Shown piece after piece: positions 21,841-29,907 of a DNA stretch of 64,000 nucleotides. The stretch's first letter is position 1. Every line of letters starts with the position of its first letter. Where the stretch lies: contig CP054675.1 of NCBI GenBank assembly GCA_013348845.1, positions 1,621,501-1,685,500 on the forward strand, in the 5' to 3' direction. The notes below the pieces were generated by a model, which was given only the letters and a program-made list of their open reading frames with translations, did no database searches and was not told the origin of the DNA. Position numbers and translations under genes: made by a program. Source of the stretch: Candidatus Tepidiaquacella proteinivora. GTDB taxonomy: Bacteria > Bacteroidota > Ignavibacteria > Tepidaquicellales > Tepidaquicellaceae.

Positions 21841-22803
21841 TTACAAAGCGAATCCTAAGCCAGCTGTAATAAGAAACCGTTTTCCCATATTTAATTCAAA
21901 GTTTGCCATCATAGTTAAAATAGTTAAACTTGCGCCTGCAACTCCCCTGAAATTTGCACCACTTTTTTGTGAAATAGAAACAGGAACAACAATATTTGTT
22001 GACGGATTACGATAATTATAGTTTAGTTCAAGATCAAACGTTTCATACTGTCCACCCCCGTAAATAGTAACAAACGGGAATTTCTTTGCAAATTGTAACC
22101 CTGCAACATAGCCGTTAGCATCAAAATATTTTACCCCATCATCATTTCTAATGCTGAAATTCTGAAACCCGCCGTGTAAACCAATCTCAAATGGAATACC
22201 CCGTATTAAGTAACTTAAATTATATCTGAAAACCACACCCGAATAACCAAGGTCACCATAATTTGACAAGTTTACACGCGGAAGAAATCTTACAATAACA
22301 TCAGCACCATAGAAAGAACCTAAACCTATTTGTGGAATAATGAATGGATAAAATTTAGTATCAACAATTCCACTTGCTAAAGTTAAATCAGGAGCCGGGA
22401 TTTGAACACCTGCTGCATAGTAATACCCCTTTGCAACCGCGGGGGTGGTAGGACCAAAAACAGTTGGCGCTCCTGTAACATTATAGTAAGCAAGAAATTT
22501 TTGACCACCAACAAGTATTGAATCTGTAAAACTTAAATCAAAAAACCTATCTTCATCAGTCAAAGCTATCGCGGACAATTTAACCCCTGCATATAAATTT
22601 GTTTCAAAAGGCAATTTACCCACGCTTTGCATTCTGCCATCTATAAAATGTGAGTTAAAAGCAATGCCAAGCCCATCGGTAAATGGTTGCATATACTTTT
22701 CGGCATATTTAGCGCCTATTTTTGATAAATTATCATTTAATACTTGAGAAAATAAAATGTTGCAAAAAATAAAAATAAAAGCCACTAATAAAATTTTTTT
22801 CAT
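21841..22803 (-). CDS. Outer-membrane beta-barrel-like protein, resembles DUF6588
   Basis: A 320-residue exported protein. The signal peptide is at residues 1-19 (ending ILFSQ), followed by a short helical stretch (LSKIGAKYAEKYMQPFTDGLG) and then alternating beta strands rich in Gly and aromatics, ending FLITAGLGFAL. This is the pattern of a small outer-membrane barrel. I think the N-terminal helix followed by an IAFNSHFIDGR-like segment matches the DUF6588 family of FCB bacteria, but this is from memory. It lies 64 bp upstream of the transketolase gene and 72 bp downstream of the six-repeat protein on the same strand. No function can be assigned. Confidence 0.65.
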   Translation of the reverse strand: MKKILLVAFIFIFCNILFSQVLNDNLSKIGAKYAEKYMQPFTDGLGIAFNSHFIDGRMQSVGKLPFETNLYAGVKLSAIALTDEDRFFDLSFTDSILVGGQKFLAYYNVTGAPTVFGPTTPAVAKGYYYAAGVQIPAPDLTLASGIVDTKFYPFIIPQIGLGSFYGADVIVRFLPRVNLSNYGDLGYSGVVFRYNLSYLIRGIPFEIGLHGGFQNFSIRNDDGVKYFDANGYVAGLQFAKKFPFVTIYGGGQYETFDLELNYNYRNPSTNIVVPVSISQKSGANFRGVAGASLTILTMMANFELNMGKRFLITAGLGFAL

Positions 22804-22875: not shown

Positions 22876-23238
22876 TTAATTCCATCCTGCTTCACTCTTA
22901 TACTTTGTAAAATATACAACTACATCAGCTTCACTTTTATATTTCGTGAAATATATTATCCAATCAGCTTCACTTTTGTATTTTGTATAAAACCAAATTC
23001 CACTATAAGGTTGAGCTTCGCTTTTATACTTGGTTTCATAAACAATTAAATCGGCGTCACTTTTGTATTTCGTAACATAAATTACTTTATCAGCTTCACT
23101 CTTATATTTTGTTATGTATACAACTTGCGATTTTGATTCAGTTACAAATAAACATAGAAATATAAATATAACCCCTAAAATTATATAAGATTTTGATTTA
23201 TACATATATATTAAGTTTTTATAAAAATATAACTTCAT
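22876..23238 (-). CDS. Six-repeat protein matching the Septknot (DUF6150) knotted family
   Basis: A 120-residue protein. Residues 1-38 include a hydrophobic signal-like helix ending ESKSQ. The remaining 82 residues are six copies of a unit with consensus YxTKYKSEAD. The KYKS cores fall at residues 44, 57, 70, 86, 99 and 112, a spacing of 13-13-16-13-13: two sets of three units joined by a short insertion (QPYSG). As I recall, this TKYKSEAD signature defines the DUF6150/Septknot family, whose small members fold into a 7(1) torus knot. Most known members appear cytosolic; this copy would be exported. The start could also be the ATG at 23205 (residue 12), which shortens the signal peptide; neither has a clear ribosome-binding site. 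The function is unknown. Confidence 0.8.
   Translation of the reverse strand: MKLYFYKNLIYMYKSKSYIILGVIFIFLCLFVTESKSQVVYITKYKSEADKVIYVTKYKSDADLIVYETKYKSEAQPYSGIWFYTKYKSEADWIIYFTKYKSEADVVVYFTKYKSEAGWN
22879..23124. repeat. Imperfect in-frame tandem repeats of about 39 bp
   Basis: Six diverged units of a 39-bp repeat (the fourth preceded by 9 extra bases) make up the coding region of the Septknot-like gene. On the plus strand each unit shows a variant of GCTTCACTTTTATATTT. The DNA copies differ at many third positions while the protein units stay alike, which points to old duplication under selection on the protein rather than recent expansion. Confidence 0.8.
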
Positions 23239-26446: not shown

Positions 26447-28414
26447 TTACTTCAATAGTATCATTGATTTTACATCTGTAAATTCTCCAGCGATAAGCTT
26501 GTAAAAATAAATTCCGGAACTAAGATTACCGGCATAAAATACCGCTACATGCTTTCCTGCCTGTTGGTTAGGATAAGAAAAACTTGTAACTTCACTTCCA
26601 AGACTGTTATAGATTGCTAATTTTACATCTGCTGTTTTTGCAAGATTATACTCTATCTTGGTAACGGGATTAAATGGATTTGGATAATTCTGGAATAACT
26701 GGAAGTTATTTACTACTTTGGGTTTCTCACCTGTTCCTGTAACTAAAGGACTTACATAAATTGTTGCTGTTCTCGTATGTACCGGAGTTCCATTAGGTCC
26801 TTTTGCAGTTACAAGTAATGTATAAGTTCCGGTGGTAACTCCACCTGTTCCTGTAATATTTATAGGAACATTCCCGGGAAACGTTGATAATTTATTTCCT
26901 GATGGGAAGGTAATATTTATCGTTCCTGATGGTGGTGTCGGAGAGATTGATGCCGAAACAATTACTGTATCTGTGTATAGTTTCACACTTGGCACCTGCA
27001 TTTGAATTATAATGTTTCCATTATTGGAATTTAAGCTATCTTGAGTTGGATTTAATCGCATAGCAAAATCCGGGAAATATGCTGACATACTTGTATAATT
27101 ATTATATCTGAAATCACACCATACAGGAACTGAAACTTTACCGTTAGACATAATTGCATCATAATCACCCTGATATGCCGGTGGGCTACCTGAGCTTGAA
27201 AGTTTCGTTTTTGCTATTTGATTTGTAATTCTCTGATTTGGAGCGAAAGTATTTCCTCCATCCGTAGTATAAGTAGCATATACATCCATACTATCACTTG
27301 TTGGGCAATTTCTTGTATCATACCATTTTATATAAAGATACCCCGTCTTATTATCACACCAGATTGCAGGAAAGAAGTTGTGATTGTTTTGTGTATTGGG
27401 ATCATCATTTACAGTTTTTCTTGCTGACCAGGTTACTCCCTTATCAGTTGAGTATCTTAGAAATATATCAGGTTTATTTCCATTTCCTGCCGGCTCATTT
27501 GAAGCATATACACAATAAAGTCTACCTCTATAAGGACCCCAACTGTTATCAGCAGCAATAAAAGGATATGGTCTGGTTCTCATACCATTTACAGTAGAGC
27601 GACCTGAAATCTCTGTACCTATATAATTTGACCATTGTACTGAAGACTGCTGTGTAAAGTTTGCGCCACCATTTGTAGATAAAAAGAATGTATATACACC
27701 AGCTCCATTTGTTCCGCTATGAGTAACTGCATAAACACAACCACCAGAAATATTACCATTAGGTCCAACGCATACCATTGCGCCAGGCAATGAGTGCGGG
27801 GTTAGGGTTGCTGTTTCTGCAAAGGTAGTTCCTATATCTGTGCTTCTCCAAAACTTTGCTGTTCCAGAACTCGTCATTGTAGAATAAACATAATTCGAGT
27901 ATGGTCCTGCGGTCATATCACAAGTAATCCAGTTCTTATCATTTCCACTTACAGCCGTTACATTGGTATAAACCCAGTTGATACCAAAATTTGTCGATTT
28001 AGCAACCCAACATCCGGTAATAGGACTTTTCATTGTTTCATAATAAAGGTTGCCTAAACTATCAACAGCGGTAACCGGGTCCCCTGCAGCATTGGGAAAT
28101 GAAACAGTTGTCGTAAGCCAATCTAACCCATTATGGTTGTAAAAAGCAACATTAATGTTCCAACCAGTAAAAAATTGTAAGGGGTTTTTAGGATTAATTG
28201 AAATATGCCCCTCGGAATATGTGGTTCCCATAATAAAATTATCATAGTCATTAATTGTAATAACAGCATAAGGAACATAAACTACAGGCATATTCAAATT
28301 ACGAAAATTCGGGGGAATTTGATCCAGTGTCGGATCATCAATTTGGGCAAATACAACACTTATAAACAAAGTAAGTGTTGTAATAAAAAAAAGAAATAAG
28401 AATGCTTTCTTCAT
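26447..28414 (-). CDS. Secreted sialidase-fold (BNR repeat) protein with T9SS sorting domain
   Basis: A 655-residue exported protein. The signal peptide is at residues 1-23 (ending VFAQ). Residues about 60-470 form a sialidase-like beta-propeller with several BNR-like boxes, such as STDIGTTFAE, STNGGANFTQ, STDKGVTWSA and TTDGGNTFAP. An Ig-like region comes next at about 480-565. The type A T9SS domain begins near residue 570 with NYPNPFNPVTKIEY and ends SMILLK. The catalytic residues of true sialidases (arginine triad, Asp, Tyr/Glu) are not obvious, so a binding or structural role at the cell surface is as likely as hydrolysis. The gene is divergent from another T9SS propeller gene across a 272-bp gap holding a perfect inverted repeat. 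Confidence 0.82.
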   Translation of the reverse strand: MKKAFLFLFFITTLTLFISVVFAQIDDPTLDQIPPNFRNLNMPVVYVPYAVITINDYDNFIMGTTYSEGHISINPKNPLQFFTGWNINVAFYNHNGLDWLTTTVSFPNAAGDPVTAVDSLGNLYYETMKSPITGCWVAKSTNFGINWVYTNVTAVSGNDKNWITCDMTAGPYSNYVYSTMTSSGTAKFWRSTDIGTTFAETATLTPHSLPGAMVCVGPNGNISGGCVYAVTHSGTNGAGVYTFFLSTNGGANFTQQSSVQWSNYIGTEISGRSTVNGMRTRPYPFIAADNSWGPYRGRLYCVYASNEPAGNGNKPDIFLRYSTDKGVTWSARKTVNDDPNTQNNHNFFPAIWCDNKTGYLYIKWYDTRNCPTSDSMDVYATYTTDGGNTFAPNQRITNQIAKTKLSSSGSPPAYQGDYDAIMSNGKVSVPVWCDFRYNNYTSMSAYFPDFAMRLNPTQDSLNSNNGNIIIQMQVPSVKLYTDTVIVSASISPTPPSGTINITFPSGNKLSTFPGNVPINITGTGGVTTGTYTLLVTAKGPNGTPVHTRTATIYVSPLVTGTGEKPKVVNNFQLFQNYPNPFNPVTKIEYNLAKTADVKLAIYNSLGSEVTSFSYPNQQAGKHVAVFYAGNLSSGIYFYKLIAGEFTDVKSMILLK

Positions 28415-28686: not shown

Positions 28687-29907
28687 ATGAACAAAATAAC
28701 ATTTATAATTATTTTTTTATTTATAGTCTCTTCTCTAAATTTATATTCTCAGTGGATTCCGGTAGGATTAGGAACACCTTTAGGAGGAGATATCAATGAG
28801 TTAAAAGTATATAATTCAAAAATGTATGCTGGTGGTACTGTTACTCTGTTTCGTTCAACAGATAATGGTAATAACTGGAACGGATGTATTCAAGGATTTG
28901 CTCTTTATGCATGGAATATTGCGAAAAATAATTATGCTATTTATTGTGGTCTTGGCTCATCAACAATGTATTATTCAACAGATGATGGTGAAACCTGGCC
29001 TCAAATGACAACCTTTCCACAATTAGCGGGTGGTATACATGATATTGAATGTGATAATAATTTTATTTATACGCAGACTGCAATGTATTTTCTAAAATCA
29101 TCAAATAATGGACAAAATTGGGTAACTGAAAATAATCCCGGTGGGTTTGTGCTTTTTTACTCAAACGGTAGACTATATTCCGCTGGAGCAGGATTAAAAG
29201 TATCAACAAATAACGGAACTAATTGGACAGTAATTTTTAATCAACCAACAACATCTATATTTGTTGAAGACTCGGTAATATTCGCAGGTTCTCAAGATAA
29301 TGGACTCTATCGCTCCGGAAATTATGGTCAGAATTTCATTAATATTATTCCCGGTTATATAAGAGTTAATGCAATTTATAAATATAATGATTATGTTTTC
29401 GTTGCTGCAGATACTATGAATCCGCCTTTCTATACAGCACATAATCTTTATGTATCAACTAATAAAGGATTTAGTTTTATAAAGAGGAATCAGGGATTAG
29501 ACAGTGTATCAATTACCTCTTTTACTTATCACGATAATTATATTTATATTTCGGTTGGAAATTACGGAACTACAAATGTTGCGATTTATAAGCGTCTCTT
29601 ACAAGATATTATTGGTATAAAGAAATATGAAGGTATTGTTCCTGAATCCTTTGAGCTTTACCAAAATTATCCGAACCCATTTAATAAAACTACAATAATA
29701 AAATTTCAAACTAAATCTAATGGTTTAGTAGAGCTAAAAGTTTTTGACTTAAGCGGAAAAGAGATTAAAACACTAATAAATGAAAACCTTAATGCAGGTT
29801 TATATCAAGTTGAATTTGATTCGGAAAGTTTAACAAGTGGAGTATATTTTTATAAATTAGTCACAAATGGTTTTGAATCTGTTAAAAAAATGATTTTGGT
29901 AAAGTAA
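28687..29907 (+). CDS. Secreted beta-propeller (BNR/Ycf48-like) protein with T9SS sorting domain
   Basis: A 406-residue exported protein. The signal peptide is at residues 1-21 (ending LYSQ). About five short propeller repeats follow, each with a box such as STDNGNNWNG, STDDGETWPQ, SSNNGQNWVT, STNNGTNWTV or STNKGFSF, spaced about 40-50 residues apart as in Ycf48-like or sortilin-like propellers. The C-terminal T9SS domain starts near residue 322 with YQNYPNPFNKTTIIKF and ends KKMILVK. The protein would be delivered to the cell surface or medium. It is divergent from the sialidase-fold T9SS gene and ends one base from the convergent tsaC gene. No enzymatic motif is seen. Confidence 0.8.
   Translation: MNKITFIIIFLFIVSSLNLYSQWIPVGLGTPLGGDINELKVYNSKMYAGGTVTLFRSTDNGNNWNGCIQGFALYAWNIAKNNYAIYCGLGSSTMYYSTDDGETWPQMTTFPQLAGGIHDIECDNNFIYTQTAMYFLKSSNNGQNWVTENNPGGFVLFYSNGRLYSAGAGLKVSTNNGTNWTVIFNQPTTSIFVEDSVIFAGSQDNGLYRSGNYGQNFINIIPGYIRVNAIYKYNDYVFVAADTMNPPFYTAHNLYVSTNKGFSFIKRNQGLDSVSITSFTYHDNYIYISVGNYGTTNVAIYKRLLQDIIGIKKYEGIVPESFELYQNYPNPFNKTTIIKFQTKSNGLVELKVFDLSGKEIKTLINENLNAGLYQVEFDSESLTSGVYFYKLVTNGFESVKKMILVK

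What the first reader, a model, noticed from the sequence alone, without database searches (positions are those of the whole stretch)
22876..23238. Exported six-repeat protein of the Septknot (7(1) knot) type
The mature part is 82 residues made of six YxTKYKSEAD units spaced 13-13-16-13-13. From memory this signature belongs to DUF6150/Septknot, one of the deepest known protein knots, made by a very short chain. This copy has a signal-like N-terminal helix, so it would have to cross the inner membrane unfolded and knot outside the cytosol. That would be an unusual folding problem, and no function is known for the family.
Basis: partly seen in the sequence, partly recalled or inferred. Interest (0 to 1): 0.75.

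Follow-up and report, generated by a model that had tools for sequence, protein, structure and literature searches.

The report
Exported six-unit relative of knotted protein
The gene makes a small, exported bacterial protein built from six nearly identical units; it is a distant relative of the most complexly knotted natural protein known, but whether this one is knotted, and how, is not settled, so it is a good natural test of whether a chain can tie itself outside the cell's interior.

Summary
Window 22876-23238 (-) encodes a 120-aa protein whose mature part has six YxTKYKSEAD units spaced 13-13-16-13-13. It matches Pfam PF19647 DUF6150 (55 bits, cut-off 27). Export is well supported: a crude Sec/SPI test scored 114 of 126 distinct family members as signal-bearing, 108 with Gln at +1 (the Bacteroidetes Q-rule), and homologues start at the second Met, 23205.

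The 7(1) knot is not shown. Pfam here does not call the family Septknot, and the crystallised 7(1) protein Q9PR55 does not hit PF19647. A bridging protein, L133, links them by sequence. AlphaFold2 models of the window protein and of the exported homologue L097 both find the Q9PR55 structures first in the PDB, but superpose badly (TM 0.33-0.36, 10 Å). Same units, global arrangement unproven.

New here: exported and signal-less branches; exported copies on tailed-phage contigs; a histidine kinase directly upstream in Bacteroidales; six units that change together in amino acid without codon homogenisation. Function unknown.

The parts
22876..23238 (-). Open reading frame of the DUF6150 protein, 120 aa, including the stop codon
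   Evidence: PF19647.4 DUF6150 E = 7.2e-15, residues 35-119
22876..23205 (-). Probable real coding sequence, from the second Met (109 aa plus stop)
   Evidence: 29 homologues start at or next to this Met; same predicted cut site with both starts
23128..23205 (-). Sec/SPI signal peptide MYKSKSYIILGVIFIFLCLFVTESKS, cut before Q
   Evidence: Crude scan: SKS|Q; no twin-Arg motif or lipobox; position conserved in relatives
22879..23127 (-). Mature domain, 83 aa, six beta-strands with short helical corners
   Evidence: AlphaFold2 best model pLDDT 97.1, pTM 0.84; the other four models 62-36
23089..23106 (-). Unit 1 corner motif YKSEAD
   Evidence: position
23050..23067 (-). Unit 2 corner motif YKSDAD
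23011..23028 (-). Unit 3 corner motif YKSEAQ, followed by the 3-residue longer central spacer with the conserved G-x-W
22963..22980 (-). Unit 4 corner motif YKSEAD
22924..22941 (-). Unit 5 corner motif YKSEAD
22885..22902 (-). Unit 6 corner motif YKSEAG, followed by the C-terminal WN
21841..22803 (-). Downstream neighbour, exported DUF6588 (PF20230) protein, 320 aa; possibly same transcript
   Evidence: PF20230 E = 2.8e-36; next to DUF6150 also in same-genus L031; both genes absent from the third genome of the genus

Best explanation
A small envelope protein of an Ignavibacteria-type bacterium. It is made with a Sec signal peptide, crosses the inner membrane unfolded and is cut before Gln; that Gln would probably become pyroglutamate. 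It then folds outside the cytosol into a compact domain of six beta-strands and short helical corners, three strands on each side of a longer central spacer. It belongs to DUF6150, which shares ancestry with the 7(1)-knotted Q9PR55. My estimates: exported 0.95; same superfamily as Q9PR55 0.9; knotted in some way 0.7; the same 7(1) knot 0.4. The units are kept alike by selection on the protein, most simply because equivalent residues of different units contact each other. Function is inference only: a stable periplasmic partner or ligand of envelope sensing, as the histidine-kinase pairing in Bacteroidales hints (about 0.25).
For: Pfam match. Signal peptide and Q at +1 in 108 of the 114 members scored signal-bearing; Ignavibacterium album has a 77% Q-value (PMC5837995). 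Bridge: L133 passes the PF19647 cut-off (33.8 bits), hits Q9PR55 (phmmer E = 1.6e-8; BLASTP 45% over 65 columns) and the window protein (41% over 69). Q9PR55 entries are PDB hits 1-4 for both models. Unit co-change: within-protein agreement 0.94 against 0.53 shuffled at Y/W, 0.84 against 0.41 at E/D/Q; codon identity at equivalent unit positions 0.507, at non-equivalent positions with the same residue 0.512. Kinase upstream in seven Bacteroidales-type loci, overlapping by 4 bases in L061.
Against: Global superposition on Q9PR55 fails (TM 0.33-0.36, about 10 A). Four of five AlphaFold2 models of the window protein are poor, as expected if interchangeable units confuse the method. The shuffle test ignores relatedness, and the masked tree is weakly resolved (59 columns; 4 Y/W and 12 E/D/Q changes). 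The kinase link is absent at the window locus. Signal prediction was a home-made rule, not SignalP, and it also passed 21 of 46 long ORFs of the window.
Confidence: 0.7

Rival explanations
1. The exported branch with 13-residue units folds into a different arrangement from Q9PR55: another number of windings, the opposite handedness, or no knot. The two extra residues per corner change how the strands cross.
For: Both models rank Q9PR55 first but superpose at TM 0.33-0.36 and about 10 A. All five models of the less repetitive homologue L097 are confident (92.7-94.7). Q9PR55 and its 48% identical relative P73136 were predicted with different knots, 7(1) and 5(1) (PMC9278004).
Against: No coordinates, so no knot was computed. 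AlphaFold ignores chain crossing and can give confident wrong topologies (PMC10672856). The strand order and central spacer of Q9PR55 look the same by sequence.
Confidence: 0.35
2. The N-terminal helix is not cleaved and anchors the domain to the inner membrane, so the domain is a membrane-tethered module.
For: The window's N-terminus is longer than in most homologues and would allow an anchor. A distant relative, L131, has a membrane segment, though after the units.
Against: Small residues at -3 and -1 and Gln at +1 are kept in 108 of 114 signal-scored members, which a mere anchor would not need.
Confidence: 0.05
3. The six units look alike because of recent tandem duplication or gene conversion in the DNA, not selection on the protein.
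For: A few genes (L066, L083, perhaps L073) show more shared codons at equivalent positions than expected.
Against: Over 79 genes, shared codons at equivalent unit positions (0.507, 8546 pairs) do not exceed non-equivalent positions (0.512); window 0.52 against 0.57.
Confidence: 0.07

Closest known systems
Pfam PF19647 DUF6150
   Same: Full-length domain match above the curated cut-off; six units and central G-x-W spacer
   Different: Unknown function; the family also holds signal-less members (L133, L142-L146) and a five-unit fusion (L131)
Q9PR55 / UU089.1 of Ureaplasma (PDB 8IWA, 8IWB, 8JRM), experimentally 7(1)-knotted
   Same: Six strands with short corners and a longer spacer after strand 3 (strands of Q9PR55 inferred from sequence); top PDB fold match; sequence kin through L133
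   Different: Corners are SFPD with 11-residue spacing; does not match PF19647 at E <= 1; global superposition with our models fails
Designed knotted tandem-repeat proteins (Doyle et al. 2023, PMC10598012)
   Same: Tandem near-identical units that can in principle stand in for one another
   Different: Artificial and all-helical; the five-unit design misfolded into a trefoil, possibly because its units were identical, whereas the natural family keeps its units alike

Membership tests
PF19647 DUF6150 | HMM score above the curated cut-off of 27 bits | tested here: met
   55.2 bits, E = 7.2e-15; 57.9 bits in the genome search
Septknot (Q9PR55-type 7(1) knot) | Detectable sequence kinship with Q9PR55 | tested here: met
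   Only through the intermediate L133: PF19647 33.8 bits, Q9PR55 E = 1.6e-8, window protein 41% over 69. Direct searches failed
Septknot (Q9PR55-type 7(1) knot) | Global fold superposes on 8IWA | tested here: not met
   Predicted models only: Q9PR55 ranks first, but TM 0.33-0.36 and rmsd about 10 A
Septknot (Q9PR55-type 7(1) knot) | Backbone forms a 7(1) knot | not testable with these tools
   Model coordinates are not released to the session
Sec/SPI-exported Q-rule protein | Basic n-region, hydrophobic core, small residues at -3 and -1, Gln at +1 | tested here: met
   SKS|Q, same pattern in relatives and in exported neighbours of the window
Sec/SPI-exported Q-rule protein | Pyroglutamate at the mature N-terminus | not tested
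   Needs mass spectrometry; glutaminyl cyclase was sought only as the broad M28 family, which is uninformative

The most novel reading that the evidence does not exclude
The exported DUF6150 branch is a natural, sequence-symmetric torus-knot family whose members tie themselves in the periplasm, with a knot type or handedness different from Q9PR55, and whose six units are held identical by residue ladders between units; tailed phages have recruited it.
Probability: 0.25. Interest if true: 0.85.

Novelty: new variant of a known kind. Interest (0 to 1): 0.55.

Why it matters
The one solved 7(1) protein, Q9PR55, comes from a mycoplasma. An exported relative would have to knot after passing through the Sec channel, away from the ribosome and cytosolic chaperones, and with nearly interchangeable units. 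A designed knotted repeat protein with identical units mis-threaded (PMC10598012), so a natural family that selection keeps symmetric makes the question of how such a chain finds one topology directly testable. Exported and signal-less branches of one family give a built-in comparison. The phage copies and the histidine-kinase pairing are the first leads to function that I know of.

Tried and rejected
Direct sequence searches of the PDB with the protein and two profiles found no Q9PR55; L133 gave the link. hhalign of the profiles with Q9PR55 residues 24-88 found nothing significant. Plasmid and phage collections had no match by tblastn. The viral structure library gave only noise. PHROGs and PADLOC have no model for the protein. 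Codon homogenisation as the cause of unit likeness was tested and rejected. A Tat signal and a lipoprotein signal were considered: no twin-Arg motif in any member, and no lipobox in the window protein. The M28 peptidase search for glutaminyl cyclase was too broad to say anything. My first gene extraction read some loci on the wrong strand and was replaced. No paper in the library names DUF6150 or Septknot.

Full report
Observation. The minus-strand ORF 22876-23238 is real and translates as reported. The six units start at residues 8, 21, 34, 50, 63 and 76 of the 83-residue mature part, spacing 13-13-16-13-13. The only significant Pfam family is PF19647, DUF6150, 55.2 bits against a cut-off of 27. 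The genome has one copy.

Start and export. Thirty aligned relatives begin at or near the second Met, 23205. A simple rule for Sec/SPI signal peptides scored 114 of 126 distinct family sequences as positive, 108 with Gln just after the cut. The rule is home-made and lenient: it also passed 21 of 46 long ORFs in the window, some of which are plainly not secreted, so the count alone is weaker than the conserved Q-rule position. Of the 12 negatives, six are L133 and L142-L146, which start directly at the domain or were trimmed at the domain start; the other six include two phage copies and a truncated start whose sequences look signal-like by eye. No twin-Arg motif was found, and the window protein has no lipobox. 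Ignavibacterium album is reported with a Q-value of 77% (PMC5837995), so the pattern fits the lineage.

Distribution. 31 of 59 relatives, 37 of 245 genomes of the class and 20 of 395 of the phylum have the family, as do 7 of 300 genomes of the order of L097. It is common in the window's order and patchy elsewhere. Named relatives are mostly Ignavibacteria and Bacteroidota, with Polynucleobacter and a few other proteobacteria. Eleven viral contigs carry it, with signal peptides and Q at +1 in most. Neighbours include a terminase (L115), a phage-type GroEL and ribonucleotide reductase (L117), a clamp loader (L121) and a baseplate wedge protein (L122) by PHROGs. PHROGs has no family for the protein itself.

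Kinship with the knotted protein. Q9PR55 was predicted and then shown by crystallography to have a 7(1) knot (PMC9278004, PMC13352647). Direct searches do not connect it with DUF6150, and Q9PR55 residues 24-88 do not hit PF19647. L133, an 87-aa protein without a signal peptide from a genome of the same family of bacteria, does connect them. It mixes SFPD corners (units 1, 2, 4, 5) with SKSEA/SKSLA corners (units 3, 6), scores 33.8 bits for PF19647, finds Q9PR55 at E = 1.6e-8, aligns with it at 45% over 65 columns, and with the window protein at 41% over 69. Residues 24-88 of Q9PR55, read from a PDB alignment, suggest six strands with a longer spacer after strand 3, as in the window protein. 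Repeated units make such alignments shift easily, so I treat this as strong but not final.

Structure. The best AlphaFold2 model of the window mature protein has pLDDT 97.1, but the other four score 62 to 36. For L097, an exported homologue with less uniform units and a more diverse alignment, all five score 92.7-94.7. Both models find the Q9PR55 entries first in the PDB, with nothing else credible, yet TM is 0.33-0.36 and rmsd about 10 A. The number of alignment columns (72-75) is about what an in-register alignment with two extra residues per corner would need; this is my inference, as the alignment itself is not shown. So the local unit is shared and the global arrangement is not demonstrated. 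No coordinates could be read, so no knot was computed. AlphaFold is known to ignore chain crossing (PMC10672856).

Units that change together. Over 56 aligned members, 50 have the same residue at Y/W in all six units. Within-protein agreement is 0.94 against 0.53 when unit columns are shuffled among proteins, and 0.84 against 0.41 for E/D/Q. In the motif, K goes mostly with E or D, and E or D goes with Q. At DNA level, shared codons at equivalent unit positions (0.507) do not exceed those at non-equivalent positions with the same residue (0.512), over 79 genes. So the likeness is kept at protein level, with a few exceptions. The shuffle control does not remove relatedness; a weakly resolved tree on the other columns gives 4 Y/W and 12 E/D/Q changes, and mixed proteins (such as WYWWWY) exist. 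Contact between units is the simplest reason but is not shown. This matters because a designed five-unit knotted protein with identical units misfolded, and its authors suggested breaking the symmetry as a cure (PMC10598012); here nature seems to keep it.

Context and function. In the window and in same-genus L031 the order is DUF6150, DUF6588, transketolase; both DUF genes are missing in the third genome of the genus. In L061, L062, L076, L084, L095, L099 and L104 a roughly 1240-aa sensor histidine kinase (HisKA and HATPase; HAMP and Cache matches are weak) lies directly upstream; the full-length copies are 40-56% identical to each other, and the L061 fragment is 81% identical to L062. In five Polynucleobacter- and Steroidobacter-type members (L097, L101, L103, L109, L141) a Cys follows the motif of units 2 and 6, a possible disulfide. 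From this I favour a stable periplasmic partner in envelope sensing, at low confidence.

Verdict. Export and family are sound; the deep 7(1) knot is plausible but unproven; function is unknown. It is a new variant of a known kind.

Noticed in passing
L115-L125 (for example L118:1661-2041, L117:4947-5255, L124:4944-5252): Tailed-phage contigs carry signal-bearing DUF6150 genes; in L118, L119, L122 and L123 the gene lies just before an HD-type phosphohydrolase-like gene (PHROGs match on L118). The Gln at +1 suggests Bacteroidota hosts.
   Followed up: partly
L061:2-2328, L062:1274-5309, L084:1163-5294, L104:442-4564: A large sensor histidine kinase directly upstream of DUF6150, orthologous across loci, with a 4-base overlap in L061.
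   Followed up: partly
L131:86-805 (-): A five-unit version with YAYEAD motifs, no signal peptide, a serine-rich linker, a membrane segment and a weak SH3_3 match.
   Followed up: no
L097:4983-5303, L101:4980-5285, L103:4974-5288: A Cys directly after the motif of unit 2 and another after unit 6; a disulfide there would close a 54-residue loop.
   Followed up: no
L143:1423-1773, L144:1492-1767, L145:1468-1743 (-): Burkholderiales members that appear to lack a signal peptide and whose units are far less alike.
   Followed up: partly
26447-28414 and 28687-29907: Exported proteins ending in NYPNPFN-type tails that resemble type IX secretion sorting domains, from memory and not tested.
   Followed up: no
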